From contig SVFZ01000026.1 of NCBI GenBank assembly GCA_015056585.1, positions 1 through 64,000 on the forward strand: 64,000 bases of DNA. The letters are read 5' to 3'. Positions 45,970 to 45,993 of this stretch are shown here, in pieces (positions within the stretch are counted from its first letter, which is position 1; every line of letters begins with the position of its first letter). A model generated the notes under the pieces. It was not told the DNA's origin and did no database searches. It saw only the letters and a list, made by a program, of their open reading frames with translations. A program made the translations under genes and the position numbers. Source of the stretch: Butyrivibrio sp. (lineage in GTDB: Bacteria > Bacillota > Clostridia > Lachnospirales > Lachnospiraceae).

Positions 45970-45993
45970 CTGCTCCTCAAGTGTGAGGAGCAG
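45970..45993. promoter_or_regulatory. VR2-downstream hairpin (candidate DGR target-recognition cruciform)
   Basis: Minus strand CTGCTCCTCA-CACT-TGAGGAGCAG, perfect 10-bp stem, 41 nt from the VR2 end. Confidence 0.7.

What the first reader, a model, noticed from the sequence alone, without database searches (positions are those of the whole stretch)
45970..45993. Matched CACT-tetraloop hairpins follow both VRs but not the TR
Seen: VR2 is followed by CTGCTCCTCA-CACT-TGAGGAGCAG (45993-45970) and VR1 by GTGGGCGCA-CACT-TGCGCCCAC (24297-24276). Stems differ in sequence but both are perfect, share the CA-CACT-TG apex, and lie at 41 and 45 nt from the VR ends. I see no equivalent hairpin after the TR. 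Known: BPP-1 target recognition needs a DNA hairpin/cruciform downstream of VR. Stem divergence with loop conservation argues for structure-specific recognition. The longer distance than in BPP-1 may be a distinct variant.
Basis: partly seen in the sequence, partly recalled or inferred. Interest (0 to 1): 0.85.

Follow-up and report, generated by a model that had tools for sequence, protein, structure and literature searches.

The report
Hairpin target tags of phage retroelement
A rumen-bacterium prophage carries a retroelement that randomises two of its own genes, and each target gene is followed by a short AATC repeat and a DNA hairpin with the same CACT loop; comparison with about 190 related DNA stretches indicates that these are lineage-specific 'rewrite here' tags, of a known kind but with a new loop and a repeat that I found described nowhere.

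Summary
A Butyrivibrio prophage DGR has a TR (23718-23843, -) and two VRs that differ from it only at TR adenines (14 and 16 sites). Perfect CACT-loop hairpins lie 45 nt (VR1) and 40-41 nt (VR2) after them; none follows the TR. They are the known DGR target hairpin (Guo et al. 2011), but the loop breaks the published GRNA rule and the distance exceeds the published 4-34 nt.

In 110 dereplicated related DGRs a strong hairpin follows 84% of VRs, 6% of TRs and 3% of shuffles. In close relatives the stem changes by Watson-Crick double substitutions while the loop stays [CT][AC]CT. In 16 two-target elements the two loops are identical in 8 (0.7 expected, p=5e-5). Loop type follows the RT tree: BPP-1 relatives have GRNA; most of the window's wider clade has C-CTTGT-G-like 5-6 nt loops; the window's subclade has 4-nt loops.

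Unreported as far as I could find: a strand-specific AATC repeat, about 8 nt apart, often ending at the stem, fills the VR-hairpin spacer (127 copies, against 6-12 in three control regions). It is absent from BPP-1 relatives.

Best reading: bipartite target tag (AATC array plus loop-specific hairpin). Function is inferred; nothing was tested at the bench.

The parts
45969..45994 (-). VR2 target hairpin, 11-bp perfect stem TCTGCTCCTCA, loop CACT (loop 45983-45980)
24276..24297 (-). VR1 target hairpin, 9-bp perfect stem GTGGGCGCA, loop CACT (loop 24288-24285)
24298..24310 (-). AATC pair in the VR1 spacer: AATC 24310-24307 and AATC 24301-24298, 9 nt apart, the second abutting the stem
   Evidence: sequence; enrichment
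45993..46007 (-). AATC pair in the VR2 spacer: AATC 46007-46004 (overlaps the target stop codon) and AATC 45996-45993 (runs into the stem); a further coding copy at 46029-46026
   Evidence: sequence; enrichment
46035..46146 (-). VR2 (112 nt homologous to TR, 16 A-only differences)
46006..46584 (-). second target gene, 192 aa, DUF6273 (C-type-lectin-like), VR at its 3' end
24343..24468 (-). VR1 (126 nt, 14 A-only differences)
24323..25225 (-). first target gene, 300 aa, DUF6273, next to the tail-fibre-like gene
23718..23843 (-). template repeat TR; no hairpin or AATC array follows it; ends CCCCTGATTC where both VRs have CCCCTGCTTC (IMH*/IMH-like)
23495..23712 (-). TR-RT spacer RNA, Rfam RT-2 RNA RF03077 (122 bits)
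23859..24263 (-). Avd, 134 aa
   Evidence: PHROG 3206 'Avd protein of DGR', E=1.9e-9
22328..23554 (-). DGR reverse transcriptase, 408 aa
   Evidence: RVT_1 7.6e-13; PHROG 1423; homologues

Best explanation
The two CACT hairpins are the cis-acting target tags of one phage DGR. They mark VR1 and VR2, and not the TR, as recipients of the mutagenised TR cDNA. SHOWN by sequence: one TR and two VRs with A-only differences; a GC-rich perfect hairpin after each VR and none after the TR; stem covariation with loop conservation; same-loop pairing within two-target elements; a strand-specific AATC array between VR and stem in the window's RT clade. INFERRED: the inverted repeat extrudes as a hairpin or cruciform in supercoiled or lagging-strand DNA, holding the VR 3' end open; a DGR component that co-evolves with the loop (RT and/or Avd, possibly with the TR-RNA) reads the loop; the AATC array, ending at the stem, is a second contact site that positions this complex over a longer spacer than in BPP-1 (40-45 nt); cDNA then replaces VR sequence up to the IMH, where the TR has GATT and the VRs have GCTT. 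Which protein reads the loop or the AATC copies is unknown; a ring-like Avd oligomer touching successive AATC copies is only a guess.
For: Hairpin score >=18: 84% of 110 VR 3' flanks, against 6.4% of TR 3' flanks, 2.8% of VR 5' flanks and 3.3% of shuffles. BPP-1 run as positive control returns its known GAAA hairpin. Six hairpins of the window's subclade: 100% of cells paired, 7 of 8 pairs with double changes, none one-sided (shuffles 63%; slides 31-50%), while the loop stays [CT][AC]CT (sequences). Sixteen two-target elements: 8 identical loops, 0.68 expected, p=5e-5; 5 of 12 after removing alike stems and the second Butyrivibrio phage, p=1.5e-4. Loop class and length follow the RT tree: 40 changes, null mean 48, null minimum 43. 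AATC: 127 in 3020 nt of spacer; 11 after TR, 6 after the hairpin, 12 before VR; reverse complement 5; shuffles 48+-6; spacing peak 7-9 nt. Wholly after the target stop codon: 66 AATC, 1 GATT, and 2-9 for permutations CTAA, ACTA, TAAC, AACT. Second-target spacers: 31 AATC, 0 GATT. In BPP-1 the structure and loop are required, stem sequence is not (PMC3240598); deleting the inverted repeat severely impairs a reconstituted DGR (PMC12875486).
Against: No functional test exists for this phage or, as far as I found, for any DGR with this loop. In BPP-1 a CTTT loop was nearly dead and spacer insertions gradually reduced activity, so extrapolating needs a changed reader. Some two-target elements carry different loops (L048 TTTAT/CGTGT, L110 CACAGT/TCCG, G341), so loop identity is not an absolute rule. 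About 16% of surveyed VRs lack a strong hairpin by my score; nd12 lacks one at both VRs. Paired stems of one element are also more alike than random ones (0.64-0.68 against 0.48-0.49), so 'stems are free' is only partly true. The AATC array was noticed after the fact; 60 of 127 copies are coding or overlap the stop codon.
Confidence: 0.85

Rival explanations
1. The hairpins are intrinsic transcription terminators or mRNA 3'-end stabilisers of the two target genes, unrelated to retrohoming.
For: Both lie just after a stop codon and before the next gene; terminators are GC-rich hairpins.
Against: No terminator-like site is called at either place on either strand, and no T run follows the stems. 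The VR1 hairpin is followed at once by ATAAGGAG, the likely ribosome site of avd, which reads in the same direction. Loop matching within elements and the link with the RT tree are not expected of terminators.
Confidence: 0.05
2. The conserved element acts as RNA (a binding site or translational switch between target gene and avd), with target recognition incidental.
For: The hairpins would fold as RNA too; at VR1 the next gene is avd.
Against: The second targets have other downstream genes (here a glycosyltransferase) yet keep the apex and the AATC array. All 48 pair cells of the six hairpins are Watson-Crick with no G-U, a weak hint at DNA. The BPP-1 target works in either orientation (section heading in PMC3240598).
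Confidence: 0.05
3. The hairpin is a real target tag, but the CACT loop is mere lineage drift with no loop-specific reader, and the AATC array only aids melting as A+T-rich DNA.
For: Several elements have two targets with different loops. Complementarity between loop and TR-spacer RNA gave no convincing signal.
Against: Identical loops within elements far above chance on different stems. The AATC excess is sequence- and strand-specific: same-composition permutations are rare, the reverse complement is nearly absent. Loop sequence and size matter in BPP-1.
Confidence: 0.2
4. VR2 with its hairpin is a recent copy of VR1's 3' region, so the match is simple duplication.
For: Same loop, similar distance, both DUF6273 targets.
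Against: Stems and most of the spacers are unrelated in sequence, and the downstream genes differ. The relatives INlla18 and L195 have yet other stems at the same places.
Confidence: 0.03

Closest known systems
BPP-1 DGR target hairpin/cruciform (Guo et al. 2011, PMC3240598) and its relatives
   Same: GC-rich perfect stem, 4-nt loop, downstream of VR and not of TR, stem sequence variable, loop conserved within the lineage, next to an IMH.
   Different: Loop CACT instead of GRNA; A-T closing pair; 40-45 nt from VR instead of 4-34; AATC array in the spacer, absent from BPP-1 relatives.
Nanoarchaeal DUSEL4 DGR hairpins (PMC4372165)
   Same: A lineage with its own constrained loop (GRA trinucleotide).
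   Different: Loop length and sequence; those hairpins lie inside the target gene.
Two-target phage DGRs with DUF6273-like (tentaclin) targets, nd4 and nd12 (PMC10743442)
   Same: One TR, two targets, DUF6273/C-type-lectin domain.
   Different: nd12 has no strong hairpin after its VRs by my score, and its ATC repeats lie in coding sequence.
Other DGRs of the window's wider RT clade (e.g. Roseburia phage Shimadzu)
   Same: AATC array plus hairpin after VR.
   Different: Mostly 5-6 nt loops closed by C-G (CTTGT, TTTAT, CTCGT, CTTTGT) instead of CACT.

Membership tests
Diversity-generating retroelement (DGR) | RT of the DGR type near the TR | tested here: met
   RVT_1 and PHROG 1423; 2533 RT homologues; its relatives regularly have TR/VR pairs. 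Motif reads LGSELNQ, a variant of the LGSxxSQ common in the wider alignment.
Diversity-generating retroelement (DGR) | TR/VR pair differing only at TR adenines | tested here: met
   14 of 14 and 16 of 16 differences at TR A.
Diversity-generating retroelement (DGR) | Avd accessory gene | tested here: met
   PHROG 3206, E=1.9e-9; no Pfam match.
Diversity-generating retroelement (DGR) | IMH at the VR end differing from IMH* at the TR end | tested here: met
   VR CCCCTGCTTC against TR CCCCTGATTC; the same GATT/GCTT difference in 54 of 88 surveyed elements.
Diversity-generating retroelement (DGR) | Active VR diversification | not testable with these tools
   VR1 and VR2 of the phage and of its relative INlla18 differ from the TR at A positions, consistent with past activity; no experiment.
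BPP-1-type target hairpin (Guo et al. 2011) | 7-10 bp GC-rich stem downstream of VR, absent after TR | tested here: met
   9 and 10-11 bp; none after TR.
BPP-1-type target hairpin (Guo et al. 2011) | 4-nt loop of consensus GRNA | tested here: not met
   Loop CACT: 4 nt long but not GRNA. BPP-1 relatives: 35 of 38 GRNA.
BPP-1-type target hairpin (Guo et al. 2011) | 4-34 bp from VR | tested here: not met
   45 and 40-41 nt. By my VR-end measure BPP-1 is at 19 nt, because my measure stops before its mismatched IMH.
BPP-1-type target hairpin (Guo et al. 2011) | Needed for efficient retrohoming | not testable with these tools
   Needs mutants.
Intrinsic terminator | GC-rich hairpin followed by a T run | tested here: not met
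   No terminator-like site in the 400-nt stretch around either hairpin.

The most novel reading that the evidence does not exclude
In a large clade of mainly gut and rumen phage DGRs, target choice uses a bipartite cis-signal not described before: an iterated AATC motif (about 8-nt step, on the coding strand, ending at the stem) plus a hairpin whose loop is a lineage-specific address (CACT here, CTTGT-like in most, GRNA in BPP-1 relatives), read by co-evolving DGR proteins. Loop and array together would let one TR serve several unlinked genes and could make DGRs orthogonal to each other.
Probability: 0.6. Interest if true: 0.78.

Novelty: new variant of a known kind. Interest (0 to 1): 0.62.

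Why it matters
How a DGR finds its target, and spares its own template, is known in detail for one phage only. A second lineage with another loop, longer spacing and an extra repeated motif shows which parts of the rule are general (hairpin after VR, hardly ever after TR) and which are lineage-specific (loop, spacing, AATC). It gives a simple sequence test for hidden second targets, and it predicts mutually orthogonal DGRs for directed evolution. The open question of what reads the loop becomes testable by loop swaps between lineages.

Tried and rejected
(1) Loop pairing with the conserved GACAAAGTA-like motif of the TR-RT spacer RNA: the permutation test gave p=0.03-0.05, no better than the sense-strand control, so I do not claim it. 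(2) AATC pairing with the GAUU of the TR RNA: rejected as a general mechanism, because elements whose TR end reads GGCTCC (no GATT) keep AATC arrays. (3) AATC as coding or stop-codon artefact: 45 copies overlap the stop and 15 are coding, but 66-67 lie wholly after the stop. (4) Terminator: no call. (5) Further VRs elsewhere in the host genome: none. (7) Wu et al. 2018 (NAR), from memory a likely place for earlier loop statistics, is not held, so priority on loop classes is not certain. A library search for AATC together with DGR found nothing.

Full report
WHAT IS THERE. The window lies in a 3.44-Mb draft genome. Its closest named relatives carrying the same DGR are Butyrivibrio (Butyrivibrio sp. 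INlla18 and a Butyrivibrio MAG). A prophage of about 38 kb lies between a tRNA-Arg(acg) gene at 57800-57874 with an adjacent integrase (56503-57639) and a partial copy of that tRNA gene near 19616-19660. Terminase, portal, major head, tape-measure and endolysin genes lie between. The DGR: RT 22328-23554, TR 23718-23843, Avd 23859-24263, VR1 24343-24468 in a 300-aa DUF6273 gene, and, 21.7 kb away, VR2 46035-46146 in a 192-aa DUF6273 gene, all on the minus strand. VR1 and VR2 differ from the TR at 14 and 16 sites, all of them TR adenines. No further VR was found in the genome. The TR-RT spacer is an Rfam RT-2 RNA (RF03077, 122 bits).

THE HAIRPINS. GTGGGCGCA-CACT-TGCGCCCAC starts 45 nt after VR1 and TCTGCTCCTCA-CACT-TGAGGAGCAGA 40 nt after VR2. 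They are two of only three perfect 4-nt-loop hairpins of 9 bp or more in 64 kb; the chance for a random 75-nt stretch is about 0.0007. Nothing similar follows the TR. Neither site looks like a terminator. Predicted DNA folding energies equal that of the BPP-1 hairpin.

CLOSE RELATIVES. Hairpins of the same kind follow the VRs of the nearest phages: INlla18 VR1 GGGGCTGCA-CACT and VR2 GACTGCTCA-TACT; another contig's VR1 GGGGCTGCA-CACT (L202); another VR2 GACTGCTCA-CACT (L195); and GCCCGCCG-CCCT in the Butyrivibrio MAG. Distances are 40-45 nt throughout. In an alignment of six distinct hairpins all 48 pair cells are Watson-Crick, 7 of 8 positions show double (compensatory) changes and none a one-sided change, far above both controls. 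The loop stays [CT][AC]CT. The next relatives out have 4-nt loops AGCC and TTCA; further relatives have 5-6 nt loops.

GENERALITY. I fetched about 190 loci around related RTs, found TR/VR pairs by their A-only differences and scored hairpins. After dereplication at 80% RT identity (110 VRs) a strong hairpin follows 84% of VRs, 6.4% of TRs, 2.8% of VR 5' sides and 3.3% of shuffles. BPP-1, run as positive control, returns GCGGGGCC-GAAA. Loop class follows the RT tree (40 changes against a null mean of 48 and minimum of 43; loop length 27 against 38). In the window's wider clade the common loops are CTTGT, TTTAT, CTCGT, CTTTGT and CTGTGT, usually closed by C-G. In 54 VRs of BPP-1 relatives, 35 of 38 called loops are GRNA. 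So the GRNA consensus of Guo et al. (PMC3240598) describes some lineages, not DGRs in general.

TWO TARGETS, ONE LOOP. The finding's central point, matched loops on different stems, was tested on other two-target elements by fetching wider parts of genomes and phage records. Of 16 elements, 8 have identical loops (0.68 expected on re-pairing, p=5e-5). After removing identical or near-identical stems and the second Butyrivibrio phage, 5 of 12 (0.5 expected, p=1.5e-4). Clear cases besides the window: G007 GCACA/GCACA at 68 and 36 nt, Dulem virus 34 GAAA/GAAA, L157 TCAAT/TCAAT, L135 CTTGT/CTTGT. Exceptions exist (L048, L072, L110, L158, G226, G341, Shimadzu).

A SECOND ELEMENT. Between VR end and stem, the coding strand carries repeated AATC: 127 copies in 3020 nt over 88 VRs, against 11, 6 and 12 in equal control regions (after TR, after hairpin, before VR), 5 of the reverse complement, and 48+-6 in dinucleotide shuffles. 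Successive ATC copies are most often 7-9 nt apart, and the last one commonly ends within 3 nt of the stem start. Wholly after the target's stop codon there are 66 AATC against 1 GATT and 2-9 for permutations CTAA, ACTA, TAAC and AACT. Second-target spacers, in unrelated gene contexts, show it too: 31 AATC, 0 GATT, and 15 of 16 with at least two ATC. In the window: VR1 ...GGAATCAGCATAATC|GTGGGCG; VR2 ...GGAATAATCTTTTTTTAATC, running into the stem. BPP-1 relatives lack it (2 AATC in 832 nt). In BPP-1 the 4-nt spacer sequence was irrelevant and longer insertions gradually lowered activity, so a 40-45 nt spacer with a sequence motif is a different architecture. No paper in the library joins AATC with DGRs; most DGR surveys that I could read do not treat hairpins at all.

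HOW IT PROBABLY WORKS. Established for BPP-1: the inverted repeat forms a DNA hairpin or cruciform; structure and loop, but not stem sequence, are needed; it affects efficiency and not the site of integration (PMC3240598). A recent E. [quoted passage not shown] By analogy the CACT hairpins mark VR1 and VR2 for retrohoming and the bare TR is spared. The new parts are inferences from conservation: a loop reader that differs between lineages, and an AATC contact array next to the stem. I tried two RNA-pairing ideas and dropped them.

VERDICT. Observation confirmed, interpretation supported by sequence comparison. As a kind it is the known DGR target hairpin; by its loop, spacing and AATC array it is a variant not described in what I could search.

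Noticed in passing
23495-23712 (-): Rfam family RT-2 RNA (RF03077) coincides with the DGR TR-RT spacer RNA here, so in this locus that Rfam sRNA is the DGR template-RNA spacer.
   Followed up: partly
22328-23554 (-), motif LGSELNQ: The RT motif that reads LGSxxSQ in the wider alignment has N for S in the window's subclade (N invariant in 12 sequences).
   Followed up: no
23718-23735 (-) and surveyed TR ends: TR ends GATT where VRs have GCTT in 54 of 88 elements: one fixed A/C difference that may act as the IMH*/IMH discriminator in this clade.
   Followed up: partly
immediately downstream of TR in surveyed elements: A conserved GAC(A/C)(A/G)AGTA motif follows most TRs, probably part of the template-RNA spacer structure.
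   Followed up: no
19616-19660 and 57800-57874: Partial and whole tRNA-Arg(acg) copies flank the prophage (att sites), with an integrase at 56503-57639 (+).
   Followed up: partly
55638-56171 (-) and 56219-56300: ToxN-like toxin (PF13958, E=1e-46) next to a 36-nt tandem repeat (2.3 copies): a type III toxin-antitoxin pair carried by the prophage.
   Followed up: no
15115-15374: Four copies of a 41-nt repeat exactly 73 nt apart (CAAATAT...CCCATGAAAAA on the - strand) in a stretch outside the prophage without a clear gene; no Rfam match.
   Followed up: no
44031-45980 (-): A two-domain glycosyltransferase (GT2 plus GT1 domains) follows VR2 inside the prophage, a possible surface-modifying cargo gene beside the second diversified protein.
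   Followed up: no
5380-13413 (-): Very large host protein (2677 aa) with a pectinesterase domain and an 18-nt tandem-repeat stretch near its C-terminus.
   Followed up: no
L157 / L305: An element with identical TCAAT loops at both targets has AATTCGGAA instead of an AATC array in both spacers, perhaps a variant spacer motif.
   Followed up: no
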